Positions 1,135 to 64,000 of a stretch of 64,000 nucleotides of DNA are shown in pieces (the first letter of the stretch is position 1; each line of letters begins with the position of its first letter). The DNA comes from Pedobacter frigiditerrae (GTDB taxonomy: Bacteria; Bacteroidota; Bacteroidia; Sphingobacteriales; Sphingobacteriaceae), in NCBI RefSeq assembly GCF_004331645.1, contig NZ_SJSK01000002.1:496001-560000 (forward strand), in the 5' to 3' direction. The notes under the pieces are model-generated. The model was not told the origin of the DNA. It saw nothing but the letters and a program-made list of their open reading frames with translations, and ran no database searches. Both the position numbers and the translations under genes were made by a program.

Positions 1135-1200
1135 GGGTTCATTAATAATAAAGCAATCAAACAATATTTAAAAAATATTTGGATATATTAATTTCTTCTA

Positions 1201-1224: not shown

Positions 1225-1227
1225 AAT

Positions 1228-2162: not shown

Positions 2163-2179
2163 TTTTTTTTTAACCTTAT

Positions 2180-2201: not shown

Positions 2202-2213
2202 TAAAATATCAGA

Positions 2214-2531
2214 ATGGAAAATCAAGAAAACAATTCAATTATTAAATTAGCAATATTTTGCTTTAAATATTCGCTTATTATAGGCACTCTACTCTTCCTA
2301 TCTTCTTTTATAGTAAGAAATGAAATAATCCCTCTCTTCGGCTTCTTCTATGTCTGTTTAGCAGTAGTCATAAATCTATTTGTCTTATTGGCTCTTTTAA
2401 TCACGCTTATTTCCACCTCCGAGAACCGAATCCAGCTGGTTAGAGCAATGGGTTTATTATTAGTAAATATCCCTATTGCCCTATTTTACTTCTGGTTTCT
2501 TATAGAATATCCATCAATCTTTAATCAATAA
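2214..2531 (+). CDS. Small three-helix membrane protein, unknown function
   Basis: The 105-residue protein has three hydrophobic segments (about residues 12-34, 40-66 and 78-98) and a short charged N-terminus. No motif of known function is visible. It lies 4 bases before the DUF4173 gene, so the two are almost certainly co-transcribed from the region of the 2180-2201 palindrome. It may be an accessory subunit of the DUF4173 protein; that is inference from spacing only. Confidence 0.7.
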   Translation: MENQENNSIIKLAIFCFKYSLIIGTLLFLSSFIVRNEIIPLFGFFYVCLAVVINLFVLLALLITLISTSENRIQLVRAMGLLLVNIPIALFYFWFLIEYPSIFNQ

Positions 2532-2535
2532 ATAA

Positions 2536-4197: not shown

Positions 4198-4232
4198 AAA
4201 AGCTCCATAAGAGTCCATTGGGGACAATGACA

Positions 4233-4269
4233 GTGAAACGATTAGTTTTAGTCTGGCTATTCGTTTCAC
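4233..4269. repeat. Perfect 9-bp inverted repeat, 19-base loop
   Basis: GTGAAACGA (4233-4241) and TCGTTTCAC (4261-4269) are perfect complements, and TAG/CTA can pair inside the loop. No T-tract follows, so it is not an ordinary intrinsic terminator. It sits in the 245-base gap between the convergent DUF4173 and ROK genes, where I see no gene. Confidence 0.5.
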
Positions 4270-4442
4270 CCTATTTATCGAGATCCACTACTATCACGAT
4301 TAAAAAATAAGGACCTACTGCTATATTTAGTATTGATAGTTAAGACGTGATTCATATTTATGAAATAAAACAACCTTCAGATTGACATAAATTAGGTTCT
4401 AGTAATCAATAAGGTATAACCATTTGAAGCCATTCTTATTTA

Positions 4443-5696: not shown

Positions 5697-5807
5697 ATTT
5701 ATAACTGTACTATTTTGATAAATATAGATAACTTATATTAAAATTTTATAAAACTTTTTTTAATACATAAATAAATTATTAATGTTTTGTCTTTACAATA
5801 GTTATTT

Positions 5808-5831
5808 CCTAATATTATGTAATTAATTAGG
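5808..5831. promoter_or_regulatory. Candidate operator of the ROK regulator
   Basis: CCTAAT (5808-5813) and ATTAGG (5826-5831) form an inverted repeat with a 12-base AT-rich centre; flanking TTAT and TAA extend the symmetry imperfectly. ROK regulators such as NagC and Mlc bind AT-rich palindromes of about this length. It sits between the divergent ROK gene and the oxidoreductase operon. No clean TAnnTTTG box was seen nearby. Confidence 0.35.
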
Positions 5832-5879
5832 ATAATGTTTTCAAACAACGATTATGCAATTAGATTAAATGAAAACCAA

Positions 5880-7166: not shown

Positions 7167-7188
7167 GACATCCCAAAATACGACGATC

Positions 7189-10662: not shown

Positions 10663-10691
10663 GTATAATTTAGCATTATAATAAATTAATA

Positions 10692-12146
10692 ATGATAGAA
10701 GATAAAGCAAATTCGAAAACCGAAAATTCAAGAAGAAACTTTATTAAAACAACAGCACTTGCCACCGCTGGATTTATGATTGTACCTCGACATGTACTAG
10801 GTGGGCCAGGTTTTCTGGCACCAAGTAATCGTTTACAATTGGCTGGAATAGGTGCAGGCGGAAAAGGAGAAAGCGATATTGCCAGTATTGTTAGAGGAGG
10901 CAAAACTGATGTTGCATTTTTATGCGATGTAGATGATAGAAGGGCTGCAAATTCTTTAAAAAACTTCCCAAAGGCAAAATATTATAAAGACTACCGTGAG
11001 TTATTGGATAAAGAAGGCAAAAATATTGACGCTGTAACGGTATCCACACCCGATCATACCCATGCGCAAATTGCCATGGCAGCCATGCAGTTAGGTAAAC
11101 ATGTATATGTTCAAAAACCCTTAACGCACGATATTTATGAAGCCAGGATGTTAACCGAAGCAGCAAACCGATATAAAGTGGTTACACAAATGGGTAATCA
11201 GGGAGCTTCGGGAGATGGGGTAAGAAGACTACAGGAATGGTATGATGCAGGCAGGATAGGTAAAGTACATACCGTTTACTGTTGGACTAACAGGCCGGTA
11301 TGGCCACAGGGAATTTCGTGGCCAACAGGAAAGGCAGAAATACCGAAAGAACTCGATTGGGATTTGTGGTTAGGTAGCGCTCCATACAAAGAATATGTAA
11401 ATAAACTGGTTCCCTTTAATTGGAGGGGATGGTGGGATTATGGTACAGGCGCCATAGGCGATATGGGCTGCCATTTAGTAGAACCGCCATTTAGGGTATT
11501 AGGTTTAGATACGCCCATTAGCGTAGAGTGTAGTGTGGGTAGTGTATATGTAGATGAATTTAAAAGAGCCTATTTACCAGAAAGCTGTCCACCATCTAGC
11601 CATGTAATTCTCACTTTTGCCAAAACGCCAAAAACCAAACATGAGGTTCAAGTACATTGGATGGATGGAGGTATTAAACCAGAACGTCCAGAAGAATTAG
11701 GTGCAAACGAAAAATTTGGCGATAATGGTGTACTTTTTATAGGTACAAAAGGAAAAATGATCTGCGAAACCTACGGCAAGAACCCAAGGTTACTGCCGTT
11801 ATCACACAATAATTCTGATCATACTAAAATTACCATTCCACGTATCCTTAATCAAGAAGAAGGACATTACACCCAATTTGCTGAAGCTGCAATTGCCGGT
11901 TACGGAAAAATACAACTCAGTTCGCCATTTGAAATAGCAGGCCCACTTACAGAAACTTTACTCATTGCCAATTTGGCCATTAGAGGTACAGATGTGCAGC
12001 GGAGAGATGCGGCAGGTAAAATCAATTACCCCGGCAGAGATATCAAGATGCTTTGGGATAAAGTAAACATGAAGGTAACCAACTTTGATGAAGTAAATCA
12101 ATTTGTAAAACGCGAATACCGAAAAGGTTGGACTTTGGGCATTTAA
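10692..12146 (+). CDS. Gfo/Idh/MocA family oxidoreductase, Tat-exported
   Basis: The 484-residue protein has a Tat signal (SRRNFIKTTALATAGF) at residues 13-28, a nucleotide-binding turn (LAGIGAGGKGESD), and the EKP position reads QKP (YVQKPLTHDIYEA), a known substitution in this clade. The substrate domain has WWDYGTGAIGDMGCHLVEPPF with the conserved metal- or substrate-binding Asp and His. It lies 29 bases after the DUF1080 gene. It is a paralogue, not a duplicate, of the first gene: length and C-terminal domain differ, which suggests a second step or another sugar configuration. Confidence 0.85.
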   Translation: MIEDKANSKTENSRRNFIKTTALATAGFMIVPRHVLGGPGFLAPSNRLQLAGIGAGGKGESDIASIVRGGKTDVAFLCDVDDRRAANSLKNFPKAKYYKDYRELLDKEGKNIDAVTVSTPDHTHAQIAMAAMQLGKHVYVQKPLTHDIYEARMLTEAANRYKVVTQMGNQGASGDGVRRLQEWYDAGRIGKVHTVYCWTNRPVWPQGISWPTGKAEIPKELDWDLWLGSAPYKEYVNKLVPFNWRGWWDYGTGAIGDMGCHLVEPPFRVLGLDTPISVECSVGSVYVDEFKRAYLPESCPPSSHVILTFAKTPKTKHEVQVHWMDGGIKPERPEELGANEKFGDNGVLFIGTKGKMICETYGKNPRLLPLSHNNSDHTKITIPRILNQEEGHYTQFAEAAIAGYGKIQLSSPFEIAGPLTETLLIANLAIRGTDVQRRDAAGKINYPGRDIKMLWDKVNMKVTNFDEVNQFVKREYRKGWTLGI

Positions 12147-12153
12147 GAGACTG

Positions 12154-13239
12154 ATGGAAACAACAAAAAAGAATTTAAGGGTATTAGTGGCAGGCTGTGG
12201 CAATATGGGTGCATCCCATGCCACAGCTTATCATACCTTGCCAGGTTTTGAAATATGCGGATTGGTTTCTACTGGAGAAAGTAAAAAAAATCTCAATGAA
12301 AAACTTGGTGGTCAATACCATTTGTATAGCGATTTTGATGAAGCTCTTTCCGTTACCAAGCCAGATGCAGTTTGCATTTCTACCTACCCCGATACACATG
12401 AAGCGTATGCAATTAAAGCTTTAGAGAATGGTTGCCACGTATTTATAGAAAAGCCATTGGCAGATAGTGTAAACGGTGCAATAAGAGTAGCCGAAGCTGC
12501 AAAAAAAGCTAACAAAAAATTATTGGTGGGCTATATATTACGCTATCATCCATCTTGGCAAAAATTTACAGATCTGGCTCAAACAATGGGAAAACCATTG
12601 GTAATGCGTATGAATTTAAACCAGCAAAGCCATGGCGCAAAGTGGACGGTACACCGTAACCTGATGAAAAGTTTAAGCCCAATTGTAGACTGTGCTGTGC
12701 ATTATATCGATATCATGTGCCAAATGACAAAATCTATGCCCATACAAGTGAGTGCCATTGGTGCTAAACTAACCGATGATATACCCGAATGGAATTATAA
12801 TTACGGACAGTTGCAGATACGCTTTGCAGACGGTTCTATTGGTTGGTATGAAGCTGGCTGGGGACCAATGATCAGCGATAATGCTTTCTTTATCAAGGAT
12901 GTTTTTGGCCCAAAGGGATCAGTATCCATTGTAGCTAAAAATGCTGGAAACGTAGGACAATCTGCTAACATTGAAGCCCACACCAAAACCGAATCAATTA
13001 AAGTACACCATGCCGCTTTAGATTGTCAATACGAATTTAGCAAAGCTGATGAATGGATAGACCTTACAGATGAACCTAACCATCAAGAACTCTGTAACCG
13101 CGAACAACGGCATTTTTTAAAGGCCATTGTTGAAGACCTTGATTTAACCAATCCTACCAATGATGCAGTAAATAGCTTAAGGATTGCTTTCGCTTGTGAT
13201 GAATCGGTGAAAACTGGCAAAATGATTAGGCTAAACTAA
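12154..13239 (+). CDS. Gfo/Idh/MocA family oxidoreductase, cytoplasmic
   Basis: The 361-residue protein has no signal peptide. It starts directly with the Rossmann fold (LRVLVAGCGNMGASHATAYH) and has the catalytic EKP (FIEKPLADSVNGA) near residue 106. It follows the previous gene by 7 bases. With two exported and one cytoplasmic oxidoreductase, the operon could oxidise a glycoside outside the membrane and reduce or isomerise the imported keto sugar inside; this is inference. It is the last gene of the operon. Confidence 0.85.
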   Translation: METTKKNLRVLVAGCGNMGASHATAYHTLPGFEICGLVSTGESKKNLNEKLGGQYHLYSDFDEALSVTKPDAVCISTYPDTHEAYAIKALENGCHVFIEKPLADSVNGAIRVAEAAKKANKKLLVGYILRYHPSWQKFTDLAQTMGKPLVMRMNLNQQSHGAKWTVHRNLMKSLSPIVDCAVHYIDIMCQMTKSMPIQVSAIGAKLTDDIPEWNYNYGQLQIRFADGSIGWYEAGWGPMISDNAFFIKDVFGPKGSVSIVAKNAGNVGQSANIEAHTKTESIKVHHAALDCQYEFSKADEWIDLTDEPNHQELCNREQRHFLKAIVEDLDLTNPTNDAVNSLRIAFACDESVKTGKMIRLN

Positions 13240-13657
13240 AATTTTTCCCTGTACCTTGTAGCATTATTGGGTGGTATATCTCCTTAACACATATTTGTTT
13301 GCAGAACATGAAATAAATTCAGGGTGACGTTTAGTCCAAGCTGATGAAGTGATGTAGATGCTCTTTTCTTAACAATTTAACATATGTATGGGGCGGCTTG
13401 CAACCTATCCTATTTTCACAACCTTCTTTCTCTAAACCCGGTTACAGCGAGCACGAAGCTGAAGAATGAGGCCAGTAAAGCGAAAGACTTGACTATCGTT
13501 AAAAAGAACATCTGACCTTGCTTTTCTAATAAAGGTGATTAAATTTTAACTAGGAATTTTGTGTGTTTAGCTAATATACTAAATACTTTCATTTTTAATA
13601 GATTTAGGCTTTGTATAAAGGTTTTGAAATTGTAGATTTGAGCAAATTTTTGAACAG
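13240..13657. repeat. Gene-free stretch with REP-like remnants
   Basis: No credible gene lies in these 418 bases. TGAAATAAATTCAGGGTGACG at 13309-13329 is the right part of the REP-like hairpin seen complete at 18775-18799. CTAAACCCGGTTACAG near 13433 resembles TTAAACCCGATTGAACC near 18853. Both loci therefore carry the same two repeats in the same order, as degraded intergenic elements. The sucC promoter is at the right end. Confidence 0.5.
13610..13640 (+). promoter_or_regulatory. sucC promoter
   Basis: TTTG (13610-13613), a 19-base spacer, then TAGATTTG (13633-13640) match the Bacteroidetes housekeeping consensus TTTG-N17/19-TAnnTTTG exactly. The sucC ATG is at 13658, giving a 5' leader of about 10 bases. 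Confidence 0.65.
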
Positions 13658-14851
13658 ATGAATATCCACGAATATCAAGGTAAACAAATTTTAAAGAGTT
13701 TTGGCGTTGCTATACAAGAAGGCATTGTAGCTGAAACTGTTGAACAAGCTGTAGAAGCAGCTAAAAAAATGAAAACTGACTATAACTCTGACTGGGTTGT
13801 GATTAAAGCACAAGTTCATGCAGGTGGTAGAGGAAAAGGTGGAGGCGTAAAGCTTGCTAAAAACTTGGATGAGGTTAAACAAAGAGCTACCGATATTTTA
13901 GGTATGCAATTGGTTACACCACAAACTAGTGCTGAAGGTAAAAAAGTACATAAAATTTTAGTTGCTCAGGATGTTTATTATCCAGGTGCATCTGAAACTA
14001 AGGAGTTTTACGTTTCTGTTTTATTGGACCGTGCAAATGGAACAAACATTATCATGTACAGTACCGAAGGTGGTATGGATATTGAAGAAGTTGCTGAACA
14101 TACTCCACACTTAATTTTCAAAGAATCTATTGATCCAAAAGTTGGCTTACAAGGTTTCCAAGCTCGTAAAATTGCTTTTAACTTAGGTTTAACTGGTGCA
14201 GCTCATAAAGAAATGGTAAAATTTGTTACCGCTCTTTATAAAGCGTATGATGCTACTGATTCTGCGATGTTTGAGATTAACCCAGTTTTAAAAACTAGCG
14301 ATGATAAAATTATAGCTGTTGATGCTAAAGTTGATTTAGATGAGAACGCTTTGTTCCGTCACCCAGATTATGCAGCAATGCGTGATAAATTGGAAGAAGA
14401 CCCAACTGATGTTGAAGCTAGCGAAAGCAACTTAAACTATGTTAAATTAGATGGTAATGTTGGCTGTATGGTTAACGGCGCTGGTTTAGCAATGGCCACA
14501 ATGGATATTATTAAAATTGCTGGTGGTGAACCTGCTAACTTTTTAGACGTTGGTGGAACTGCAAATGCAACTACAGTTAAAGCTGGTTTTAATATCATTT
14601 TAAAAGACCCTAATGTAAAAGCAATCTTCATTAATATTTTTGGTGGTATTGTTCGTTGCGATAGAGTTGCACAAGGTGTTATTGATGCTTATAAAGAAAT
14701 TGGAAATGTTCCAGTTCCTATTATTTGCCGTTTACAAGGAACTAACGCTGCAGAAGCTAAAAAATTAATTGACGATTCTGGCTTGAAAGTTTTCTCTGCA
14801 ATTCAATTAAAAGAAGCTGCTGATTTAGTTACTCAAGTTTTAGCTAGTTAG
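13658..14851 (+). CDS. sucC: Succinyl-CoA synthetase beta subunit (ADP-forming)
   Basis: The 397-residue protein catalyses, with SucD, the TCA-cycle step succinyl-CoA to succinate with ATP formation. It begins [17 protein letters not shown], has the ATP-grasp domain ([21 protein letters not shown]), and ends with the CoA-ligase domain ([17 protein letters not shown] and [19 protein letters not shown]). Length is the family standard. sucD is not adjacent; the gene stands alone with its own promoter and terminator, as in other Bacteroidetes. Codon use is biased toward frequent codons, consistent with high expression. Confidence 0.97.
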
Positions 14852-14894
14852 TCAGGAAGTTTTTAGTCCGCAAGTCGGAAAGATATATAATATT

Positions 14895-14931
14895 AAAAAA
14901 GACCAGCCGTAAAACGAGCTGGTCTTTTTTT
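14895..14931 (+). terminator. Intrinsic terminator of sucC
   Basis: GACCAGC (14901-14907) pairs with GCTGGTC (14918-14924) across a 10-base loop. It is preceded by six A and followed by seven T, so it can work in both directions. Confidence 0.9.
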
Positions 14932-15176
14932 GTTCCTAACCTTGCTTCAGTACAACCTTAAAAGTTGCACCAATTCAACACTCGCTATACCTTAATCAGC
15001 CTGTATAAATTTACATATGTAACAGGGTTCAAGTAGGCATCAAGTAGGTATCATATAACCTCAATAGCTATGTGACGCCTAGATCATATTTACTTGGTTA
15101 CTATTTCCTACAAGAAGAGTATAACTAACAATAAGAAAAAATCAGGAATGTAAATAATATATTCTTATTAAAAACA

Positions 15177-15205
15177 AAGGCCAGTCGCTTGAACGAACTG
15201 GCCTT
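15177..15205. terminator. Second sucC-downstream hairpin
   Basis: AAGGCCAGT (15177-15185) pairs with ACTGGCCTT (15197-15205). Loop length and sequence (CGCTTGAACGA) resemble those of the first hairpin (CGTAAAACGA). The T-tract is weak (TTCTATAG), so it may be a stable RNA element or a decayed terminator. The 270 bases between this and the first hairpin hold no gene that I can support. Confidence 0.55.
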
Positions 15206-15290
15206 CTATAGTTTGGTTGGTTGTTAAGTTCTATTATAATTCTGTTCACTCCTATTTAGAGAGTTTTTAACCTGGTTTAATTTAAATGAA

Positions 15291-15318
15291 AAAGCTCTGG
15301 CCATCCAACCAGAGCTTT
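15291..15318. terminator. Third sucC-downstream hairpin
   Basis: AAAGCTCTGG (15291-15300) pairs perfectly with CCAGAGCTTT (15309-15318) across an 8-base loop. The sequence between hairpins two and three (15206-15290) could be a short RNA, but no promoter box was identified. Confidence 0.55.
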
Positions 15319-15701
15319 AATCAAACCAAATATAAATGTACTTTTTTGTATGAACACAACAAATATAAGGATTTATTTCACATAAAATAGATTAAAAAGA
15401 AAAATTATTTAATTTTTTTTACAGAAAATTAAATAATAAGTATAAAATTCTGCTAATCAGTGATTTTTTACCTTAATAACACACAAAAAAATATATGAAA
15501 TTGATATAAATTAAAATATAACTCAAATTTAAAGGCATATTTTAATATTTAATGATTTTAAAAAGCACTTTTATTCAATTTTTTAACATAAAAACCTAAA
15601 AACACTTAAATATTTTAGTAAAATAGAAAATATCTATAAATTCAATCTAAAACAAAAGTTCATTCTATTAGATTATATTTGATACCTCAAACAAATTATT
15701 G
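15319..15701. other. AT-rich gene-free stretch
   Basis: About 380 bases, very AT-rich, with stop codons in all frames and no convincing hairpin or promoter box. It presumably holds the histidine kinase promoter, but I cannot place it. Confidence 0.5.
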
Positions 15702-16901
15702 ATGAACAATTTTCAGATCCCTAATTCATTAATTCCAGACAATGATGCAGAGCGAATTAATAAGCTACACGCCTACGATATATTAGACACCCCTGAAGAA
15801 GATACATTTAATAAGATTGCCATATTAGCTGCTCAAATTTTTAACACCCCAATAGCTCAAGTAACTTTTGTAGATGAAGAACGAGTATTCTTTAAAAGCA
15901 ATATAAGCCCGTTACAAGCAACACAAATAGACAGGAAAGATAGTTTTTGTTCTATTGCTATATTAAATAGCAATGTAACCTTGTTTGAGAATATGCTTAA
16001 CGTACCTGAACTGGCAGACAATCCTTTTGTGTTAATGGAAAATGGTGTAAGGTTTTATGCTGGCGCACCTTTAAAAACCCCTGAAGGTCTTCAATTAGGC
16101 ACAGTATGCGTTTTAGATGTAGAACCAAAAGAAGTAACAGCGCAGCAACTCCAGATGCTGGAAACATTATCGTCTATAGCAATGGATGAACTTGAACTAA
16201 GGCTTGCTACAAGAAAGGCGATAAGAACTCAAACGGACATGATGAACAGAATTGTTCACGACCTAAAAAATCCAAATACAACCATTTCACTTTCTGCAGA
16301 GTTAATCAAAAAAAAGGCAGATGACCCGAAAATTGTTGCCGACTTTGCAGATAGGATTAAAAGGGCTGCCACTAGTGTTTTGGGTAGTTTAAATAATTTA
16401 TTAGACTTGTCGCAAAGTGAGAATGCAAGTTTCAGGTTAAATTCTCAAGAAATAGATGTTGCTGGAATATTGGAAACTATCAAAAAGAATTTTGAATTAA
16501 TCGCTTCTCAAAAACAACAAACGGTAGAAATATCTTGTAATTGCTCTACTGTAATTTTAGCAGACACAATAAGATTACAAGAAGCTTTCGAAAATTTATT
16601 AAGTAATGCTTTAAAATATGCTTATCCCAATACTACTATTTTTATCAATGTAAGCACAATAGATAACCAAATCATAATTGAATTTAAAGACCAAGGGCAA
16701 GGATTATTAGAAGAAGATATGAGTAAACTATTTACAAAGTTTGCCAGATTAAGTGCCATCCCAACAGGAAAGGAACATTCTAATGGTCTAGGTCTATCAA
16801 TTGTTAAAATGCTAGTGGAGCTACACCATGGAAAAGTGTGGGCAGAAAGCGATGGAAAAGATAAAGGAGCTTCCTTTTTTATTGCGTTACCAGTCTCTTA
16901 A
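15702..16901 (+). CDS. GAF-domain sensor histidine kinase
   Basis: The 399-residue soluble kinase has a GAF domain (about 20-165, with FVDEERVFFKSN and FYAGAPLKTPEGLQLGTVCVLD), a dimerisation domain with the phosphorylated His in NRIVHDLKNP (about 186), and a HATPase_c domain (N-box FENLLSNALKYA, G1 FKDQGQGL, G2 NGLGLSIVK). It has no membrane segment, so it senses a cytoplasmic signal. There is no response regulator nearby, so its partner is unknown. The frame is open from a TTG at 15699, but ATG at 15702 is the natural start. Confidence 0.9.
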   Translation: MNNFQIPNSLIPDNDAERINKLHAYDILDTPEEDTFNKIAILAAQIFNTPIAQVTFVDEERVFFKSNISPLQATQIDRKDSFCSIAILNSNVTLFENMLNVPELADNPFVLMENGVRFYAGAPLKTPEGLQLGTVCVLDVEPKEVTAQQLQMLETLSSIAMDELELRLATRKAIRTQTDMMNRIVHDLKNPNTTISLSAELIKKKADDPKIVADFADRIKRAATSVLGSLNNLLDLSQSENASFRLNSQEIDVAGILETIKKNFELIASQKQQTVEISCNCSTVILADTIRLQEAFENLLSNALKYAYPNTTIFINVSTIDNQIIIEFKDQGQGLLEEDMSKLFTKFARLSAIPTGKEHSNGLGLSIVKMLVELHHGKVWAESDGKDKGASFFIALPVS

Positions 16902-53061: not shown

Positions 53062-53865
53062 ATGCCAATATCAAGTTCAACAGTTGAAGTCTCAGATGAT
53101 TGCGTAGGAAATCGTTGGGAAATCAATGATGAAAACGAGTTAGCCAATCTGGTTGCTTTTGTTACAAAGGCACAGGCTATCCATGCACAAAATATTTTAG
53201 CTGGCATTGTATCCGATTCAATTGTTTTTGAAGCAGCTCAAGAGCAACAAATTAAACAGTCAGCAATAGACGCTTTAACGGTTCCAAAAGATGCACATGG
53301 CAAAGAAATAAGAGGAACTGCATTATGGCATCGTGATGGTATATTATTTGAAGCAATATCTTGGATTGTTGCTAGAAAACACTTCCCAGATGCAATAATG
53401 CGAGATCCTCATATTTCACCAACCACTCAAGGTTTAGATGGGTTGATGATTGTTCTTAGCCCAGATATGGATGAGGTTCTTTCTACAATAATATTCGAAG
53501 ATAAATGTGTAGAAGATCCTACTCATACTTTTAGATATGAAACTTTACCCGCATTATTGCGCTTTCATGTGGATAGTAGAAAAGTTTTAGAAAGCGCAAG
53601 TACAATTTTGCAAACAGTAATACCACTAGCCCAAAGACCTTCTATGGCAGCAAAATCAATTTCATCCACGGTGAGGGCGTATCGTGCGAGTTTCCCAATC
53701 CCTCCTTCAATGGATAATGTACCGGGAAGGGCAGGGATTTTTGATCGATATAATCAAATTGTAGGTATTGCGAAAGAACGCAGAATCGGTGGAATGTTTC
53801 TTGCTACAGAAGACATAAGGGCTTGGTTTGAGCAATTTGCAATTAAAGTTATAGGCAAGCTCTAG
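53062..53865 (+). CDS. HamA-like PD-(D/E)xK nuclease of a Hachiman-type defence system
   Basis: The 267-residue protein has the spacing of a PD-(D/E)xK nuclease: Glu97 (ILFEAISWIVARKHF), Asp126 (TTQGLDGLMIVLS) and Glu146-Asp-Lys148 (STIIFEDKCVEDP). In Hachiman, HamA (DUF1837) is a nuclease held inactive by the helicase HamB and released on DNA damage. The gene ends one base before the helicase gene. HamA membership is inferred from this fold plus the partner, not from a match; a related two-gene system such as AbpAB would look the same here. Confidence 0.55.
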   Translation: MPISSSTVEVSDDCVGNRWEINDENELANLVAFVTKAQAIHAQNILAGIVSDSIVFEAAQEQQIKQSAIDALTVPKDAHGKEIRGTALWHRDGILFEAISWIVARKHFPDAIMRDPHISPTTQGLDGLMIVLSPDMDEVLSTIIFEDKCVEDPTHTFRYETLPALLRFHVDSRKVLESASTILQTVIPLAQRPSMAAKSISSTVRAYRASFPIPPSMDNVPGRAGIFDRYNQIVGIAKERRIGGMFLATEDIRAWFEQFAIKVIGKL

Positions 53866-53866
53866 A

Positions 53867-56800
53867 ATGTTCGACGCTCAATCTGCCAACTTATTGCGCT
53901 TAGCGCCTGAGATTCCTGGAATTACTCCAGATGAATTGCCTCGAATACTTACTGATGTTTATACAGAAATTGTAGTAAATAGACTTAAAAGTAATAATCA
54001 AGCACAGAATTTAGAACCTGTTTTCAGATTAATTGAGATAGCTAATACTTATGAAGCAATCACTGTATTAATTGGCGACGAACAAGTAAGGAAGGCCTCA
54101 GCTTTTGTGGCTGGTAGTGCATATCAAATATTAGCTAAAAGTGCAGAGATAAATTCCGTAGCCGAAACAATACCACTTTCTAGAGATCACATTAACGGTC
54201 GACTCGCAAGTGCATTACTTTTCTTAATTGCCGAGCAATATCCAGATTCGAAAGAAGCAATCAATGGTTTTAATATACCAAATGAAAACTATTCACTTAT
54301 ATTGCAAATGCTTTGTGAAAGTCTTCGTGACCTAATACAAGAACGATTTGAATCCATAATTGAACGTGGGACAAGACGTGGTATTTATAATATTCAAGGC
54401 GGAAATTTGCAAGTGCAAGCTACCAATAAATTATATGAAACAATTTTACAGGGGGTTGAATTTTTAGCTTCTAGAATATTAACTAAAGCACCTCCAGTGT
54501 CAGTTGTGTTCCAATACGAAACTGCTAATCAGTTTTTTAACTCCGTTATTCAATTATGTACTTTAAATCATCAAGGTGCTGTAATGGAAACGGATTTTAT
54601 AACTACATATCCTGGCCCCGCTCATCTTGCTAAATTACTTATTTCAACTGCCACAACTCTTGAAGCAGCTTCCATTATGAATATTGAAGTTCCAGGTAAT
54701 GCGAATGAGGAAAAGTGGTCACAATGGCTCGCACATCGAGCTCAATCAAAGCCCATCCTTTGGCCAAATCATCGTATTGCCATCGATCAAAATTTTCATT
54801 TGCAGGGAAATTCTGCAGTGATTGTCCTTCCTACAGGTGCTGGAAAAACTACTATGGCAGAATTTAAGATCGCAGGAGTTTTAGCTACTGGTAAAAAAAT
54901 TATTTTTTTAGCCCCAACTAATGCTCTCGTTGAACAGCTTAAGAATGATCTGCGTGACGGTTTACCAGAAGAAATATTTGGCGAAAGTGATCCTTTTGAA
55001 AGCGATTTCTTTTTTACTGGGGACGATGCGCTTACTACTTTAGAGGTGATGACACCTGAGAAATGTCTTGCCTTTCTAAATTTTAATCCAAGTGCATTTT
55101 CTGAAGTTGGCTTACTGGTTTTTGATGAATGCCATATGCTTAGTCCTTCTTCGGGGAGCTTAAGGCGTGCAATAGACTCGATGTTAACGATCTTAACTTT
55201 CCAAAAATATGCCCCCAATGCGGATTTTCTATTTCTATCAGCAATGGTCAAAAATGTAGATGACTTTGCAAAATGGATTTCAAGCATTACTACTAAGCCC
55301 TGCATACCGATTAACATGGTTTGGAAACCTAGTAGACAATCAAGAGGAATTTTAATCTATGACAAGGCAGAGCTAGATGCTGCGATTGAGGCTTCCACAA
55401 ATGCACAAATAGCGGCGGATGACGATGCGGTTGCTAATGGAAGAGCGAAATCAGGGGGTGTAAGGGCTGCCCCAGGTCGGTTACTTAAAGTCAAACCTCA
55501 TGCCTTATTTGGGCTTGTTCATAATTGGAATCATGGAGCACCAGAGGATATACGTATAAGAAAGGTAGCAGAGGAAGAATACCAGCTTGACCCAAAATTT
55601 GTCGATAACTATGGAAGACAAATTTATCCAGCTTCTAACGGTACAGAAATTGCAAAAAAACTTGCTATTGCAAGTGTAAAGTCTGGCTACAAAACAATTG
55701 TCTTCATAAATACAGCTCCTTCAACGTACACTTCTGCATTAGATATCCAAGCTAGTCTACCAGATACAGTAAACTATACCTCTCACGAACAATTACTTTT
55801 ATCGGCGATTGAAACTGAACTTGGCAATCTTGATGCTTCAATGCTACAGAACATGAAATCTGCTGTTCCTCATAACGCTCGGCTTGTAGGCTTTGAAAGG
55901 CGACTTGCTGAATCATTATATAAACGTGCTGACGGCGCAAGTGTAATTTTTGCAACAACAACACTGTCACAGGGTATGAATTTACCTGCACAGGTTGCTA
56001 TACTTTCTGCCGATCAAAGAGCTATGCAGGATGAGGATGGAGATGGTTACAGTCAGGATAACTTACAAGCACATGAATTATTAAATGCGGCAGGTCGTGC
56101 AGGAAGAGCCGGATTTTTAGCCAATGGACTTGTGTTCTTAATTCCTAGAAGGGTGCTTACTTTTACCGATTATCAACCTGTCGAAGAAGCCTTACCTATT
56201 CTAGAATCAATAATTCCTGAAGATGAACGTTGTGTCATTATAACAGACCCTTTGGAAAAGATATTAGATCAGATTCAAACTGGTGCTGAGCCTGGTGAAG
56301 ATGTTGTCTATATGTTTCATCGCTTACTATCAGATACCCCGGAATCAGATGCTGTTGAGACAATTATGAACAAATCATTCGGTCGATTTATGGCGGAAAA
56401 AGGAAATGAGGTCAATAACTACGATGAAAAAATTGCAGAATTTAAAGCTGCTATATTGCAGATCCCGCGACTGGATAATACTCCAGATTGGCTTTCGCGA
56501 CTTACAATTCAGTCTGGCGTTTCCCCTAATGTGATAATTAGTCTGCATGATGCCATTAAAAGTCAATTTCAACAATTACCAGAAACCATACAAGGTTGGG
56601 TCGATTGGCTTATTGTTTATTTAAAAGCTAACCCAGAAGCCGGTCGATATTGTTTTGGAAAATTATTATCACCTCTCGAAAAAGTCAGTGGAATTACAAT
56701 ATCAAGTCTTGACCATTACGATGCAGCTTTGGAGCAACTCTCTTTAGGTCTTAAAAGTTGGATTCACGGAAAAACCATTAAAGAAATCAATGATAATATT

Positions 56801-57169
56801 GGTGGTACAGGTATTGGCCGAGATAAAGTGTGCCCTAGGGCCAGGGAGCTGGTTACAAACATTGCACCTCGCCAATTATCTTACTTTACGAGTCTAATTG
56901 TGCAAATAGTGAGCTATTTAGCTGATGAATCAGAAACATTAATTTCAAAATTAGCAGTTCTAGAATGTTTGCCTAATGCTATTAGATATGGTTTTGATAG
57001 ACCCGAAAAGTTAGCATTCTTTTCTATTGAGACCAAAACGAACCCATATTTAGGTAGAGTGGCCTCACATCTAAGTTATGATATTAGATTAGGGAATGTA
57101 GAGCTAGTTGAAGATAATGATGATTATAAAACTGTATTCTTAACTGTGAAAAGCCTACTTGAGGGTTGA
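53867..57169 (+). CDS. HamB-like Ski2-type DEAD/H helicase
   Basis: The 1100-residue SF2 helicase has an N-terminal domain of about 310 residues, then Walker A (VLPTGAGKTTMAEFKIA, near 325), motif Ia (LAPTNALVEQL), DECH (LLVFDECHMLSP, near 419), motif III (FLSAM), motif V (ATTTLSQGMNLPAQVAIL, near 700) and motif VI (ELLNAAGRAGRAGF, near 743). A C-terminal helical domain of 300 residues follows. SQGMNLP and the GRAGR spacing place it in the Ski2-like group, to which HamB belongs. It is co-transcribed with the nuclease gene (1-base gap). Confidence 0.85.
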   Translation: MFDAQSANLLRLAPEIPGITPDELPRILTDVYTEIVVNRLKSNNQAQNLEPVFRLIEIANTYEAITVLIGDEQVRKASAFVAGSAYQILAKSAEINSVAETIPLSRDHINGRLASALLFLIAEQYPDSKEAINGFNIPNENYSLILQMLCESLRDLIQERFESIIERGTRRGIYNIQGGNLQVQATNKLYETILQGVEFLASRILTKAPPVSVVFQYETANQFFNSVIQLCTLNHQGAVMETDFITTYPGPAHLAKLLISTATTLEAASIMNIEVPGNANEEKWSQWLAHRAQSKPILWPNHRIAIDQNFHLQGNSAVIVLPTGAGKTTMAEFKIAGVLATGKKIIFLAPTNALVEQLKNDLRDGLPEEIFGESDPFESDFFFTGDDALTTLEVMTPEKCLAFLNFNPSAFSEVGLLVFDECHMLSPSSGSLRRAIDSMLTILTFQKYAPNADFLFLSAMVKNVDDFAKWISSITTKPCIPINMVWKPSRQSRGILIYDKAELDAAIEASTNAQIAADDDAVANGRAKSGGVRAAPGRLLKVKPHALFGLVHNWNHGAPEDIRIRKVAEEEYQLDPKFVDNYGRQIYPASNGTEIAKKLAIASVKSGYKTIVFINTAPSTYTSALDIQASLPDTVNYTSHEQLLLSAIETELGNLDASMLQNMKSAVPHNARLVGFERRLAESLYKRADGASVIFATTTLSQGMNLPAQVAILSADQRAMQDEDGDGYSQDNLQAHELLNAAGRAGRAGFLANGLVFLIPRRVLTFTDYQPVEEALPILESIIPEDERCVIITDPLEKILDQIQTGAEPGEDVVYMFHRLLSDTPESDAVETIMNKSFGRFMAEKGNEVNNYDEKIAEFKAAILQIPRLDNTPDWLSRLTIQSGVSPNVIISLHDAIKSQFQQLPETIQGWVDWLIVYLKANPEAGRYCFGKLLSPLEKVSGITISSLDHYDAALEQLSLGLKSWIHGKTIKEINDNIGGTGIGRDKVCPRARELVTNIAPRQLSYFTSLIVQIVSYLADESETLISKLAVLECLPNAIRYGFDRPEKLAFFSIETKTNPYLGRVASHLSYDIRLGNVELVEDNDDYKTVFLTVKSLLEG

Positions 57170-58969: not shown

Positions 58970-59150
58970 TAAAAAAGAATGAGCATCTGTATTAACACTT
59001 GAAGAAATCGTGTGTGGTCACTTGCGTGACTATCATTCTTAATAAACTACATAATATTATTAGCAGCTCATTAAGTTGTATTAACAGTTCAGTCTTGCTA
59101 TAGCGCAACTAAACCCTTGTTCTTCTCCTATTAATCCTACCAATACAAGT
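58970..59150 (-). ncRNA. Candidate structured RNA downstream of the two RT genes
   Basis: On the reverse strand, AAGAATGA (59040-59033) pairs with TCATTCTT (58982-58975), which runs into TTTTATT, a terminator-like 3' end near 58970. Inside, GTCAC-GCAA-GTGAC is a perfect hairpin with a GNRA tetraloop, followed immediately by CACACACG. Upstream, TTGC and GCAA flank GCTATA in a second small hairpin. A 10-base direct repeat (TGTATTAACA on the plus strand) occurs at 58988-58997 and 59077-59086. No coding frame fits. Location, strand and CACACAC suggest the RNA partner of the RT pair. The 5' end is uncertain; the core is 58970-59040. Confidence 0.5.
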
Positions 59151-59151
59151 A

Positions 59152-61089
59152 TTAGTAGGTAGATGCCCATTCTTTCTTTTTTAGAACTACTTCTAAATCA
59201 ATTTCTTGATCCCATTCAAAAAACCAAGTTTTTTGATCTTGAATAGTTTTAACTTCGTTAACAAAATTACCTGTGCGAAGATAACTACTATGAACCATGA
59301 TAGCTTTTTTATTTTTGAAGTCAACATAAGGACAGCTAATGAAGTCAAAAAATAATAAAGTCAATTCAGATTTAGTAAAATGATCGGTTGCTTCCTCAAA
59401 CTTTTTAACAACAGCTTTTTCCAGTAAGCTTTTAATGATTTTAAAATCAGTATTATTATCAAAATAATAGAGTAAAGTCACGATCTGAAAGTAGTTCAGC
59501 TTTTTCAGTTGCGAAATATCATTTGTCTTTGTCAACCCTTGGTCGAGATTGAAATATTCTCTTAATTTTTTTTCAGTAAAAATATATTCTTTGCCCAATC
59601 CTTTTAGAGATATAAGCAAATTAAGAGTCTCGATATTGGTTTCGTTTTTATTTTGTCTTCTATGATAAGTTGTCATCACAAATTCTGCTTCCTTCAATAT
59701 TTTCGAAAACACTGTATGTTTATAATCATCAGCTTTTTCAGATAGAAGCTTAGATATTAGTACAATAATTTGAGAAATCTTGAAAGTGGCATTAGCTGTG
59801 ATATTGAGAGAATAGTAATAGAAAACTACCTCGATGAACATAAGTAAAAAATTCTCAAAACCGTCTTGCTCCTTATCAATGTCTTCATTTTTGAGATATC
59901 CTACTAATTTGCGCTTAAATAGCCTTATGATATCCCGATTAATTACATCATAAGTCAAATTATTTAACCTCACTACACACTGAACATCTTTGATAAAATG
60001 TTGTGATATAGAGTATGGTCGACTAATTGGCACCATTTTTTTAGAAGTAGAATCTATTAAGCTGTCAAAAAGTTCCCCTACCAGTTTTTTTACCTGTCTT
60101 TTACCTACGGCGATATTAGAAACAAATGGTGAAGCAGTTTTTTTTGTTTTATTTGTATTCAGGTAAAGTTTATAGAATCTAAGCTCTTCTTTATATGCCT
60201 TAAATATTGCCTCTTGTATCTTTTCTTCATTGGAAAATACAAAGATATCATCAACATATCTTCTGACTTCATAATCAACGCCCATCTTAAAATTTTGCAT
60301 TAAAACTCGATTGATAACGTTAATATCTACTTGTTGTAATAGTATTTCAGCAAAAATCCTAGAAATTTCAGGTCCCACCACAATGCCATTAGTTTCATTA
60401 TAGTTTGCCTGCTGCATCAATTTATCAAACTTGTTTTCGAATAGATTTTCAAACTTATGGTTACGTTTGGCACTTTCCTTATCTTTTATTGCCCAAGTTA
60501 TCGAATGTGTGTATATATGGTAAAAGCATTTGCTTATGTCAAACTCCCACAATAAGTTAAAACGTTGTTCAAGTCTTTGATAATCATGCCTGTCATAGAA
60601 CTTATAAATTAGGTCGACCGGCTTATAAATAAAATAGGATTTTAAATATTGAGGATCATATTCCTTAATTTCAGGTTCTGTCTCAACTTCCGCATCTTTA
60701 TGGCCATCTTCTGGAAATACTAATTCTGAAATGGAGCTGAATTTAGCGACCTTTTTAATGCTTCTTAAAGAAAATGGACTTTTTGAGCAGAGGTGAAGCA
60801 TTATTGAATCATACTTCTTGTAAAAGTCTATAAAATTGTATTGATTAAATGGATGTATTACACTTAAAGTTCTTGTATCAGAATCATTTGACTTAGCGAT
60901 TTCATAGTTAAAAGGGATTCCGTAAATTTCCCTCAATGGTCGAAGCTTTGATATAAAATATTCAATATTCCCCTCACTGACGATTTGATAGAATCCGTCA
61001 TTTGAGAACAACATCGGCACTTCATAGGGCAATAATTCAGTGAGCAAAATCCTATTTGCATCGTTTTTATCAATTTTAACCCTACTCAT
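59152..61089 (-). CDS. Reverse transcriptase, Drt3b-like (second RT of a DRT3-type pair)
   Basis: The 645-residue protein has an N-terminal domain starting RVKIDKNDANRILLTELLPYEVPMLFSNDGFY, then RT motifs: A in WEFDISKCFYHIYTHSITWA (Asp near 184), B around NGIVVGPEISRIFAEILLQQVD, and C YVDD at 278-281 (YEVRRYVDDIFVFSN). About 360 further residues follow that have no maturase or endonuclease signature, so it is not a group II intron RT. Its start overlaps the stop of the first RT gene by 8 bases. A pair of unlike RTs of about 400 and 650 residues is the architecture of DRT3 (UG3 plus UG8). Confidence 0.7.
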   Translation of the reverse strand: MSRVKIDKNDANRILLTELLPYEVPMLFSNDGFYQIVSEGNIEYFISKLRPLREIYGIPFNYEIAKSNDSDTRTLSVIHPFNQYNFIDFYKKYDSIMLHLCSKSPFSLRSIKKVAKFSSISELVFPEDGHKDAEVETEPEIKEYDPQYLKSYFIYKPVDLIYKFYDRHDYQRLEQRFNLLWEFDISKCFYHIYTHSITWAIKDKESAKRNHKFENLFENKFDKLMQQANYNETNGIVVGPEISRIFAEILLQQVDINVINRVLMQNFKMGVDYEVRRYVDDIFVFSNEEKIQEAIFKAYKEELRFYKLYLNTNKTKKTASPFVSNIAVGKRQVKKLVGELFDSLIDSTSKKMVPISRPYSISQHFIKDVQCVVRLNNLTYDVINRDIIRLFKRKLVGYLKNEDIDKEQDGFENFLLMFIEVVFYYYSLNITANATFKISQIIVLISKLLSEKADDYKHTVFSKILKEAEFVMTTYHRRQNKNETNIETLNLLISLKGLGKEYIFTEKKLREYFNLDQGLTKTNDISQLKKLNYFQIVTLLYYFDNNTDFKIIKSLLEKAVVKKFEEATDHFTKSELTLLFFDFISCPYVDFKNKKAIMVHSSYLRTGNFVNEVKTIQDQKTWFFEWDQEIDLEVVLKKKEWASTY

Positions 61090-62269
61090 ATTTCCAACAT
61101 TCTTTTATTTTTTTCATATCAGCAAAGGTAAACCTATGATAAATCTTTTGCTTGAACCCCTGTTTGAAAGAATATTTCATAAGCCTTATTTTATCTGCAA
61201 CTGGAAGTTTTGCAGTTAGTTTAGTTCCGAAAGAACCTGCTTTTGAATTTAATAACTGATGGTAAAAGCCATTTAATTCCTTTAACGGAGATAAATCGTT
61301 AATATGCAAATAATTATAGTATATCCCCGCCTTTAAATCATGTCCACTTTCTGAAGAGCTTTTAATGCTGTAATTCCCCGTTAAAAACCTCAACCTTTTT
61401 TCCAACATAGCAATATCAGAATCATTCAAAAAGGTTACGAAGGACAACACCAGTCTCGTTTTTATTTTTTTTACTTTCGTTTCGGCGATAGATATATTGA
61501 CACTCTTTGTATCGCCCTTGAGTCTCTGAATCAAAAATTTATAACCTAAATATTCAAGTGGGTTTTTTTCAGTAATTGAACTTCCATTATATATCTGGGT
61601 CTTCGATATATTTTGTGTGAGTCCAGTTTCTAAATTTTTATCCATGTGGTCACGGATTTCCTTAAGCGAGTCCTCACTGTTGCTAAAAATTAAAATGTCA
61701 TCTACAAACCTTGAATAATAATATACCCCCCTACATCCGCGGATATATCTATCAAATTTACGCATATAAATTTCTGAAAGAGTAGCGCTAATGCCTATTC
61801 CTCTAGGCAATCCGTTATAAGCAGCGATCACACTGTTTGTGAAAATTCTTTTGATTGCCCACAATGAAAAATACGAAAGTCTAGCATCGTTGTGAAGCTT
61901 TGAGTATATTCTATCTCTATCTACACTCTCATAAAATTTTGAAATATCTGTTCTTAAAATCCAAAAAGGACAGCCATCTGGCAAAAGAGTTGTAACCTGG
62001 TTAATTATAACACGCCTATTAGACTGTTCATCTTTATAAATGCGTTTTATATTATCATTCAGCTTTCTTAAAATGAGAATGTCTACAAGATTACCCGTAT
62101 AAAAAATCAATCCATTTTTATGGATGCTAAAATCAAAATTACCTTCGGTAATTGCCTTACTAGCAATTTCCAGCTTGGCTACCAAATCCTCTTTAGTAAT
62201 TTTATGTTCCTTTAAATCGGCAAGCCTCAGATATCGAAGTAATTCTTTTGCAGAGAAATTTTGGTTCAT
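61082..62269 (-). CDS. Reverse transcriptase, Drt3a-like (first RT of a DRT3-type pair)
   Basis: The 395-residue RT has motif A in CPFWILRTDISKFYESVDRDRI (Asp near 108), motif B in NGLPRGIGISATLSEIYMRKFD, motif C FVDD at 188-191 (YSRFVDDILIFSN), and a thumb-start LEYLGYKFLIQRLK near 250. It lacks maturase X and endonuclease domains. It is transcribed leftward ahead of the second RT gene with 8 bases of overlap, so both are made in step. The upstream gap (62270-62420) has a TGGGT-AAAA-ACCCA hairpin and no gene. Confidence 0.7.
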   Translation of the reverse strand: MNQNFSAKELLRYLRLADLKEHKITKEDLVAKLEIASKAITEGNFDFSIHKNGLIFYTGNLVDILILRKLNDNIKRIYKDEQSNRRVIINQVTTLLPDGCPFWILRTDISKFYESVDRDRIYSKLHNDARLSYFSLWAIKRIFTNSVIAAYNGLPRGIGISATLSEIYMRKFDRYIRGCRGVYYYSRFVDDILIFSNSEDSLKEIRDHMDKNLETGLTQNISKTQIYNGSSITEKNPLEYLGYKFLIQRLKGDTKSVNISIAETKVKKIKTRLVLSFVTFLNDSDIAMLEKRLRFLTGNYSIKSSSESGHDLKAGIYYNYLHINDLSPLKELNGFYHQLLNSKAGSFGTKLTAKLPVADKIRLMKYSFKQGFKQKIYHRFTFADMKKIKECWKYE

Positions 62270-62420: not shown

Positions 62421-63257
62421 TTACCTAATTTTATGTGCTTTATCCAACTTGCGATGACAAAGTGATGCTATAGTCATAATTTCTAATGCGTCCTGTTCAG
62501 TCATTATCCAATTGGTTTTGGGCACATGAGCGGTAGTATTTCTAAACATCCCGAAAAATCCAATCAAGAGATTTGAAAAACCTTTATGTTCACTAATATC
62601 TGTTTCATCCGTGAAGTTATTGATTATAAGAATTGGTTCTTTTGAGGAAAATGCCTCAGAAACTAGTGCCGCACCATCAATTTTTAAATCTGACAAGTAT
62701 CTTAGCCTATCAGCAACTCCCTTTGTGGTTTCAAATACCGCATGAAAATAATTGTCCATTAAAAGCTCAGGCTTGCAATATTTGAAAATGTCTGTGTGTA
62801 CATTGCGTTGTTCAAGCTTATGCATCAAAGTATTTGCCCTAGTTTGCGCATCACTTATTGTTTTTGATGCAGTTTTATTTCTAAATACTCCATCTATTCC
62901 ATATTCAAGACCTATAAAAGAAAGTGGTTCATTAATCGAGGCTACAATTGAAGAAAAGTAGTTATCTCCATAAATTACGAAACGAGCTGGATGGATAGCT
63001 GTCTGGATAAATTTCAGAATGTCGTTCGAGTTTTTGGCATAAAATTGTTTTTGATCTAACGCATTCACCAGACGTTTCCATTTGGTTATATCTGGTGTAG
63101 GGTTATCAATTTTACAATCATTGAGATATTTATTAATGTCGGTCCCAGATAAGCCTTCGCTTATATTCCCTATTGCCCTACATACAGCCTCCAATACATT
63201 TGGAGGAATTTTATCAAACGCTTTTCCCATTAATTTTATAAGTGTTATTAATTTCAC
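62421..63257 (-). CDS. TIGR02391/Ymh-like protein with HEPN RX4H motif
   Basis: The 278-residue protein has an N-terminal helical part and a C-terminal domain with YFHAVFETTKGVADRLRYLSD, GAALVSEAFSSKEPILIINNF, and GFFGMFRNTTAHVPKTNW, typical of the TIGR02391 (Ymh) family. R239 and H244 give RX4H, placing it in the HEPN superfamily. Such proteins recur in defence islands as putative abortive-infection effectors. ATG at 63257 is used; ATG at 63230 is a possible alternative start. Confidence 0.75.
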   Translation of the reverse strand: MKLITLIKLMGKAFDKIPPNVLEAVCRAIGNISEGLSGTDINKYLNDCKIDNPTPDITKWKRLVNALDQKQFYAKNSNDILKFIQTAIHPARFVIYGDNYFSSIVASINEPLSFIGLEYGIDGVFRNKTASKTISDAQTRANTLMHKLEQRNVHTDIFKYCKPELLMDNYFHAVFETTKGVADRLRYLSDLKIDGAALVSEAFSSKEPILIINNFTDETDISEHKGFSNLLIGFFGMFRNTTAHVPKTNWIMTEQDALEIMTIASLCHRKLDKAHKIR

Positions 63258-63366: not shown

Positions 63367-64000
63367 TCAATTAAGCGCCTCTACGCCAGTTTTAGCAAAA
63401 TTACTGCACAAATCAAATGCGGTCTGGCTTCTCTGCAAACCTGCTCCGTACATAATAGATTTAAACTTGCTTTCTTCATCCTTGTAATTACGCACATTCT
63501 GGAAGTAACCCGTGACCGCATTATATGCCCCAAACAAAGTGCCTTTAGTTGTGGCTTCCTGTTGGGTAGGATTTGTTAAAGCATATTCCATTACGCTACT
63601 TACCATGTTATTGTAGGCACTTGAAAATTCATCCTGTTTACCAATTTTTAGATTAGCTAACGTTTCCTTGTTAGGTGCCACTGAGAGCTGAACCAAACGT
63701 TTTACCGCCCTATCGGTAATCTTAACCTTAGACCATTGGTTAAAAACCTCCTCCAATTCATTTGCTAATTGGTTGGTAATCCCCAAAAGTTTATTTGCCT
63801 GTTTTAACCTTTCCTGTGCGGTTGCGGTGTGGCGTATCTTAATGCAATTAGTATGGTTTTTCAATGCTGCATTTAAGGTATTTTGGCAACAAACACGAAC
63901 AGGCGTGAAAGATGCCATAATGCTCCCAAAACCATCGTGTGAAGATGTAAGAAAAAGATATTTCTCAATACAATCGTTTCTGCCAACACGGATAAAATCG
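63367..64000 (-). CDS. DUF932 domain protein, C-terminal part (runs off the window)
   Basis: The frame is open to the window edge: DFIRVGRNDCIEKYLFLTSSHDGFGSIM precedes ASFTPVRVCCQNTLNAAL. This is the phage/plasmid-type DUF932 (TIGR03299-like) family, with HTATAQERLKQANKLLGI and LFGAYNAVTGYFQNVRNYKDEE following. The internal ATG at 63918 is not the start. Such genes travel on plasmids and integrative elements, which supports the island being mobile or plasmid-derived. The role is unknown. Confidence 0.8.
   Translation of the reverse strand, partial: DFIRVGRNDCIEKYLFLTSSHDGFGSIMASFTPVRVCCQNTLNAALKNHTNCIKIRHTATAQERLKQANKLLGITNQLANELEEVFNQWSKVKITDRAVKRLVQLSVAPNKETLANLKIGKQDEFSSAYNNMVSSVMEYALTNPTQQEATTKGTLFGAYNAVTGYFQNVRNYKDEESKFKSIMYGAGLQRSQTAFDLCSNFAKTGVEALN

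What the first reader, a model, noticed from the sequence alone, without database searches (positions are those of the whole stretch)
58970..59150. Candidate template RNA with a CACACAC run beside a GNRA hairpin
On the RT strand, just after the second RT stop, a GTCAC-GCAA-GTGAC hairpin sits next to CACACAC inside an 8-bp closing stem that ends in a T-tract. No protein frame fits. From memory, recent work on DRT3 describes an associated ncRNA with an ACACAC template used to make GT-repeat DNA; this needs checking. A matching run in a structured RNA at this place would be a strong hint that the mechanism is conserved here.
Basis: partly seen in the sequence, partly recalled or inferred. Interest (0 to 1): 0.85.

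Follow-up and report, generated by a model that had tools for sequence, protein, structure and literature searches.

The report
Template RNA of a DRT3 defence system
Next to two reverse-transcriptase genes sits a small structured RNA whose CACACAC stretch very probably serves as the template for making repetitive anti-phage DNA, as has been shown in E. coli; this is a distant but ordinary-looking member of a recently explained defence system.

Summary
The two reverse transcriptases are Drt3a and Drt3b (PADLOC E 1e-122 and 2e-198; homologous to PDB 9z6y and 26cz). On their strand, 136 nt after the drt3b stop, lies CACACAC (59010-59016), directly after a GTCAC-GCAA-GTGAC hairpin. At every Drt3b locus I fetched and counted (38 of 38, Bacteroidota and Pseudomonadota) a CA run of at least 6 lies on the same strand within 230 nt of the drt3b stop; shuffles average 3.6 of 38 and control stretches 0-2 of 31-38. 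Published work (PMC13174585) shows that the E. coli counterpart templates poly(dTdG), while Drt3b makes poly(dCdA) with protein side chains as template; the residues involved are present in the window.

One part is corrected: the 8-bp closing stem is not the likely fold (probability at most 0.02). The same 3' arm pairs over 15-18 bp with the last coding bases of drt3b, giving a predicted ~208-nt RNA (58971-59178; 203 nt of it fold at -71.5 kcal/mol, z -8.7) that overlaps the gene's end. Relatives tend to share a core of closing stem, hairpin, CA template and closing stem. The mechanism is known; this is a new, divergent member.

The parts
61082..62269 (-). Drt3a (395 aa, UG3-type reverse transcriptase, FVDD active site); expected to copy the RNA template
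   Evidence: PADLOC PDLC02174 E 1.2e-122; PDB 9z6y Drt3a E 8.1e-43; FVDD
59152..61089 (-). Drt3b (645 aa, UG8-type); expected protein-templated poly(dCdA) synthase with C-terminal priming Tyr645
   Evidence: PADLOC PDLC02176 E 2.4e-198; PDB 26cz E 3.3e-107, 9z6y E 5.4e-83; E23, R73, D184, F189, R244, YVDD 278-281, Y645 match the published E22, R71, D182, F187, R241, YVDD, Y666
58971..59178 (-). DRT3 ncRNA as predicted by folding (about 208 nt); its 5' part overlaps the last codons of drt3b; ends inferred from folding only
   Evidence: 203 nt of it fold at -71.5 kcal/mol, z -8.66, 0 of 500 shuffles as low; 18-bp outer stem
59161..59178 (-). 5' arm of outer stem, inside the drt3b codons for K-K-E-W-A-S
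   Evidence: pairs with 58971-58988; duplex -24.6 kcal/mol, 0 of 5000 shuffles as low
58971..58988 (-). 3' arm of outer stem, running into the T-tract; candidate 3' end of the RNA
59136..59159 (-). Stem-loop 1, 10 bp, contains the drt3b stop codon
   Evidence: MFE fold
59120..59135 (-). 5' arm of the inner closing stem (7 + 6 bp with a 3 x 3 internal loop), partner 58991-59006
   Evidence: MFE fold; mean pair probability of the 6-bp part 0.54-0.91 by transcript ends assumed; the equivalent stem in relatives passes a matched-arm test
59087..59114 (-). Stem-loop 2
   Evidence: mean pair probability 0.94
59038..59075 (-). Stem-loop 3 (13 bp plus top stem)
   Evidence: mean pair probability 1.00
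59017..59030 (-). Hairpin GTCAC-GCAA-GTGAC, abutting the template on its 5' side; candidate template boundary
   Evidence: mean pair probability 1.00; likely counterpart of the stem-loop next to the template in E. coli DRT3 (PMC13174585)
59010..59016 (-). Template CACACAC
   Evidence: CA run present in 38 of 38 loci; predicted mean unpaired probability 0.88-0.90
58991..59006 (-). 3' arm of the inner closing stem, starting after 3 nt (GAT) behind the template

Best explanation
The window holds a DRT3 anti-phage system: drt3a, drt3b and a downstream ncRNA. The RNA folds so that CACACAC lies single-stranded between a GNRA hairpin on its 5' side and the 3' arm of a closing stem on its 3' side. Drt3a binds the RNA and copies the CA run over and over, resetting by two-base microhomology, into poly(dTdG); the hairpin marks where copying must stop. 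Drt3b, primed on its C-terminal tyrosine and using Glu23 and Arg244 in place of a template strand, makes the complementary poly(dCdA). The strands pair into repeat duplex DNA that arrests infected cells. Shown here: identity of the RTs, position and conservation of the run, conservation of the Drt3b template and priming residues, and a strongly structured sequence. Inferred by homology to E. coli DRT3: transcription, copying, product and defence.
For: RT identity. CA run of at least 6 within 230 nt after drt3b, same strand: 38 of 38 loci; opposite strand 1 of 38; control stretches further downstream 0-2 of 31-38 per strand; shuffles mean 3.6, maximum 8 of 38. Closing stem: real arm pairs bind better than arms swapped between loci, 0 of 20000 permutations as low, in each of two groups (14 and 19 loci). 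Template free, hairpin on the 5' side and closing helix on the 3' side all at once: 13 of 33 loci against a shuffle mean of 1.4, maximum 5 in 40 shuffles. Window RNA z -8.66. Residues equal to E. coli E22, R71, R241, YVDD and Y666 are all present in the window; across 36 loci R241 and Y666 equivalents are 36 of 36. Mechanism in E. coli: PMC13174585.
Against: No transcript, product or phage data for this organism. The window's own closing stem ranks only 4th of 14 against swapped arms and is not better than shuffled arms (z -0.40); within its four-member clade the swap test is weak (834 of 20000 permutations as low). RNA ends are assumed. No Rfam family matches. In the 34 nt before the template, hairpin energy over the 17 loci with a distant template is no better than shuffles (mean z 0.006). 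For the 14 distant-template loci, single criteria (hairpin before 10, closing helix after 12) are reached by some of 40 shuffles (maxima 13 and 12). L020 shows no closing stem.
Confidence: 0.93

Rival explanations
1. The structure is merely the 3' untranslated region and terminator of the drt3 operon; the CA run is a chance match.
For: The predicted RNA ends in a T-tract behind a long stem, and the run alone arises by chance in about 2% of shuffles (108 of 5000).
Against: 38 of 38 loci carry a run on the same strand near the drt3b stop; the E. coli counterpart is an experimentally shown template (PMC13174585).
Confidence: 0.03
2. The RNA is a DRT3 ncRNA, but this copy is inactive or decayed in this genome.
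For: No expression data; damaged relatives exist (L017, one in-frame stop; L018 lacks a recognisable Drt3b start).
Against: Both RTs are intact with all tested catalytic, template and priming residues; the RNA is strongly folded.
Confidence: 0.05
3. One reading: the functional unit is a short RNA of about 70 nt closed by the 8-bp stem AAGAATGA/TCATTCTT.
For: This stem is in the minimum-energy fold when only 81 nt are folded.
Against: In longer transcripts its probability is 0.00-0.02 because both arms have better partners; such an 8-bp pair turns up in 961 of 5000 shuffles. I found no equivalent when reading the folds of L008, L003 and L018, though I did not test this formally.
Confidence: 0.03

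Closest known systems
E. coli DRT3 (drt3a/drt3b/ncRNA; 667-aa Drt3b as in PMC13174585; loci L030, L031; PDB 26cz)
   Same: Gene order, both RTs, ncRNA after drt3b, template about 130 nt after the stop (129 against 136), a hairpin reaching the template on its 5' side, a closing stem on its 3' side, same Drt3b gate and priming residues
   Different: About 34% identity in Drt3b; template CACACAC rather than ACACAC; the hairpin spans 14 nt here but 57 nt in the E. coli folds, where it also takes in the first A of the run; E. coli has a separate terminator-like hairpin, whereas here the outer stem reaches into the drt3b coding end and runs into the T-tract
DRT3 complex of PDB 9z6y (Drt3a, Drt3b)
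   Same: Homologous over nearly the full length of both proteins
DRT10 and DRT9 (ncRNA-templated repeat DNA)
   Same: Confined ncRNA template copied repeatedly, as stated in PMC13174585
   Different: Templates for other repeats, no second protein-templating RT (from the papers seen and recall); not tested here
DRT3 loci with the template 28-76 nt after the stop (L004, L025, L036 and others; 21 of the 38)
   Same: CA run; as a group a closing stem that pairs bases after the stop with bases after the template
   Different: Shorter stretch before the template, so no room for stem-loops 2 and 3; longer Drt3b open frames (694-772 codons read from the preceding stop, in the 19 that are unbroken)

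Membership tests
DRT3 | Drt3a (UG3) and Drt3b (UG8) encoded side by side | tested here: met
   Genes overlap by 8 bp; PADLOC Drt3a 1.2e-122 and Drt3b 2.4e-198
DRT3 | ncRNA downstream of drt3b with conserved ACACAC template | tested here: met
   CACACAC 136 nt after the stop, same strand; 38 of 38 loci have a run. Whether the RNA is made is not testable here
DRT3 | Structured loop: template next to a stem-loop | tested here: met
   By prediction: mean pair probability of the hairpin 1.00; template mostly unpaired
DRT3 | Drt3b dA and dC gate residues (E22, R241 in E. coli) and R71 | tested here: met
   E23, R244, R73 in the window
DRT3 | Priming tyrosine at the Drt3b C-terminus (Y666) | tested here: met
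   Y645, the last residue
DRT3 | Active-site YVDD (Drt3b) and xxDD (Drt3a) | tested here: met
   YVDD 278-281; FVDD in Drt3a
DRT3 | Makes poly(dTdG)/poly(dCdA) and stops phage | not testable with these tools
   needs the bench
Published DRT3 ncRNA covariance model (41 systems, Fig. 1 legend of PMC13174585) | Match to that model | not testable with these tools
   The model was not at hand; Rfam 15 gives no match in the window nor at the ncRNA of L030

The most novel reading that the evidence does not exclude
In this lineage the template RNA and the protein-templating enzyme share DNA: the 5' arm of the RNA's outer stem is the coding sequence of Drt3b's C-terminal tail just before the priming tyrosine, and the stop codon sits in stem-loop 1. 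Excising the RNA would then destroy that drt3b message, so each transcript yields either RNA or enzyme, setting their ratio. More generally, the RNA template cannot drift because the partner strand's repeat is fixed by Drt3b side chains, which would explain why all 38 templates are CA.
Probability: 0.3. Interest if true: 0.55.

Novelty: new member of a known kind. Interest (0 to 1): 0.42.

Why it matters
It indicates that the RNA half of DRT3, worked out in E. coli, is kept in a distant Bacteroidota lineage and at every locus compared, as expected if RNA template and protein template must specify complementary repeats. It suggests a small shared RNA core and offers a divergent system for testing how much RNA Drt3a needs.

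Tried and rejected
Chance match: rejected by conservation. The 8-bp closing stem: rejected by ensemble probabilities. A general overlap of the RNA with the drt3b coding end: last 36 coding bases against bases 14-50 after the template gives 78 of 20000 permutations as low for the 14 distant-template loci, with the window, L009 and L022 ranking first both ways, and nothing for the 19 near-template loci (6549 of 20000); against bases 0-26 nothing in either group (6871 and 7094 of 20000). Two control pairings per group gave 1120-15987 of 20000. So I treat the overlap as special to the window and perhaps a few others. Codon choice tuned for that stem: not supported, since 856 of 5000 synonymous recodings pair as well. 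Hairpin energy in the 34 nt before the template: no general signal (mean z 0.006 in 17 distant, -0.35 in 21 near loci). MAFFT alignment of the four clade RNAs: too divergent for base-by-base covariation outside the template region, so no covariance model was built. RNAalifold on seven near-template groups (16 of 21 near loci): by my reading a closing stem just after the template in five groups and a hairpin before it in four; the L029 group and L025/L033 are folded otherwise there. Viral contigs: no relatives in two scans. Phage records: no match covering 80% of Drt3b. Rfam: no match in the window. Structure prediction was not run because solved homologues exist.

I had also put the missing glutamate of L018 down to a contig edge; the frame before its residue ~52 is simply not recognisable as Drt3b. 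An earlier count gave outer-stem coordinates off by one or two bases; those in 'parts' are right.

Rows dropped: L001, L002 (own genome), L010 (same contig as L008) and L032 (near-copy of L025) before the count of 38. Near-copies L015, L016, L031, L033, L039 stayed in the 38 but were dropped for (33 loci). drt3a was seen beside drt3b in 37 of 38 (not in L018, whose contig begins 346 bases before the match; only parts in L017 and L034). Residue counts use 36 loci (L017 broken and L025 split left out). Profile matches weaker than E 1e-60 were not examined. Of the plasmid records with a Drt3b match, only the 8 of 195 covering at least 80% of the query were fetched. Of the E. coli hits (22 records in each, overlapping) 4 were fetched.

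Full report
What is there. On the minus strand, after the stop of the second RT gene, the sequence reads GTCAC-GCAA-GTGAC-CACACAC (59030-59010) and reaches TTTTTT at 58976-58971. By itself the arrangement is only mildly unlikely: 41 of 5000 shuffles hold a 5-bp GNRA hairpin and 961 of 5000 an 8-bp pair; 108 of 5000 hold a CA run of 7 or more.

The neighbours. 61082-62269 is Drt3a and 59152-61089 is Drt3b by PADLOC profiles (E 1.2e-122 and 2.4e-198). Both match the solved DRT3 complex 9z6y, and Drt3b also matches 26cz. The genome has one Drt3b; the second, weak match of that search is drt3a.

Published mechanism. In PMC13174585 (preprint; I read abstract, outline, parts 1 and 2 of 3 of the results, section 37, and passages) DRT3a uses a 5'-ACACAC-3' motif in a loop of a ncRNA encoded downstream of drt3b to make poly(dTdG). 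Mutating the motif abolished product and defence. DRT3b makes poly(dCdA) without nucleic-acid template, with E22 and R241 as gates and Y666 as primer. Read-through into the stem-loop next to the template is held to truncate the products. Its Figure 1 legend speaks of a covariance model from 41 systems and its methods of 32 unique hits; no word beginning 'bacteroid' occurs in its main text. Deng et al. 2026 is not held; I saw it only as cited in PMC13174585, PMC13314766 (abstract, outline, section 4 part 1 of 2) and PMC13213688 (passages). PMC8934634 (passages) reports that about 97% of UG3 RTs are adjacent to a UG8 RT.

Conservation. I collected Drt3b loci by profile search at E up to 1e-60: 6 of 395 genomes of the class, 9 of 400 of the order, 6 of 395 of the phylum, 1 of 3 and 2 of 296 in two further orders, 3 of 145 of the genus, 9 of 249 of another family. 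The searches overlap, and the class, order, phylum and genus counts include the window's genome. To these I added 2 genome contigs, 8 plasmids and 4 E. coli chromosomes. After removing duplicates, 38 loci including the window were examined: all 38 have a CA run of at least 6 within 230 nt after the drt3b stop on the same strand. On the opposite strand 1 of 38 has one. Stretches further downstream have 0-2 of 31-38 per strand. Shuffles average 3.6 of 38 with a maximum of 8. The L020 run (CACACA, no closing stem found) may be chance; its Drt3b sits on a very long branch.

Fold. With the last codons of drt3b included, the minimum-energy fold of 203 nt is -71.5 kcal/mol against -37.9 +/- 3.9 for shuffles (z -8.66; 0 of 500 as low). 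Without them the z-score is modest (-1.67 for 213 nt). The outer stem's duplex energy of -24.6 is reached by 0 of 5000 shuffles but by 856 of 5000 synonymous recodings, so the amino-acid sequence already implies most of it.

A shared core. Across loci of unlike sequence, the first bases after the drt3b stop pair with bases just after the template. Real arm pairs beat swapped ones in 14 loci with a distant template and in 19 with a near template, 0 of 20000 permutations as low in each. The window itself ranks 4th of 14 both ways and is no better than shuffled arms (z -0.40), so its own inner stem is weak evidence taken alone. Free template with hairpin before and closing helix after occurs together in 13 of 33 loci against a shuffle mean of 1.4 and maximum of 5; hairpin before alone in 26 (shuffles 15.2, maximum 23), closing helix after alone in 28 (16.6, maximum 21). 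Among the 14 distant-template loci the single criteria are reached by some shuffles. RNAalifold on seven near-template groups shows the closing stem in five and the hairpin in four, and a terminator-like hairpin behind in most, all by my reading. In a quick tree of 36 Drt3b the window falls with L008, L003 and L018 (support 100), in a larger group (96) that holds E. coli L030/L031 and has only distant templates. In the E. coli folds a 57-nt hairpin reaches the first base of the run, as the 14-nt hairpin abuts it here.

Enzyme residues. The published E. coli positions E22, R71, D182, F187, R241, YVDD and Y666 correspond to E23, R73, D184, F189, R244, Y278-D281 and Y645 in the window. Over 36 loci: R241 36, Y666 36, D182 36, F187 36, E22 34 (one D in L021; L018 has no recognisable start), R71 34. 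All 35 Drt3a long enough to judge have a motif of the xxDD kind (34 by the pattern, L009 with YSDD).

Conclusion. This is a DRT3 system with a well-formed template RNA. Identity, position, conservation and predicted fold are shown; expression, product and defence are inferred from E. coli. It is a new, divergent member of a known kind. The overlap of the RNA with the drt3b coding end is the one unusual feature, seen clearly in the window only. In the searches I made I saw no description of it or of the near and distant template layouts, but the Deng paper, figures and supplements were not visible to me.

Noticed in passing
window 53062-57169 (+): Two adjacent genes, 267 aa (no PADLOC or Pfam match) and a 1100-aa DEAD-box helicase with likeness to HamB and PDC-M23B over part of its length: perhaps a Hachiman-like or candidate two-gene defence system.
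   Followed up: partly
window 62421-63257 (-): Gene just upstream of drt3a matches PD-Lambda-3_B (E 1.5e-77) and Pfam Hypoth_Ymh; no check was made whether its usual partner is present.
   Followed up: partly
window 63367-63999 (-): DUF932 gene running off the window end, next in the same direction.
   Followed up: no
L004-L007, L011-L013, L017, L019, L023, L025, L026, L029, L033, L035-L041: 21 of 38 loci have the CA template only 28-76 nt after the drt3b stop and a longer Drt3b; their RNA has no room for the long 5' domain, and the two layouts need only 2 changes on the Drt3b tree.
   Followed up: partly
L014, L015, L016: ACACACACA template 134-140 nt after the stop although their Drt3b falls among the near-template group: a separate gain of a 5' domain?
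   Followed up: no
L018: Closest-clade Drt3b without a recognisable first ~50 residues and without drt3a in the 346 bases held before the match, yet with CACACAC 184 nt after the stop: perhaps a decayed copy or an assembly fault.
   Followed up: partly
L025 (CP083496.1): Drt3b annotated as two hypothetical proteins on an E. coli plasmid; near-identical chromosomal records are annotated with one drt3b gene.
   Followed up: no
L030, L031: E. coli DRT3 sits between a tyrosine recombinase and ogr/Delta-like and polarity-suppression genes, as in a P4-like satellite (P4 likeness recalled).
   Followed up: no
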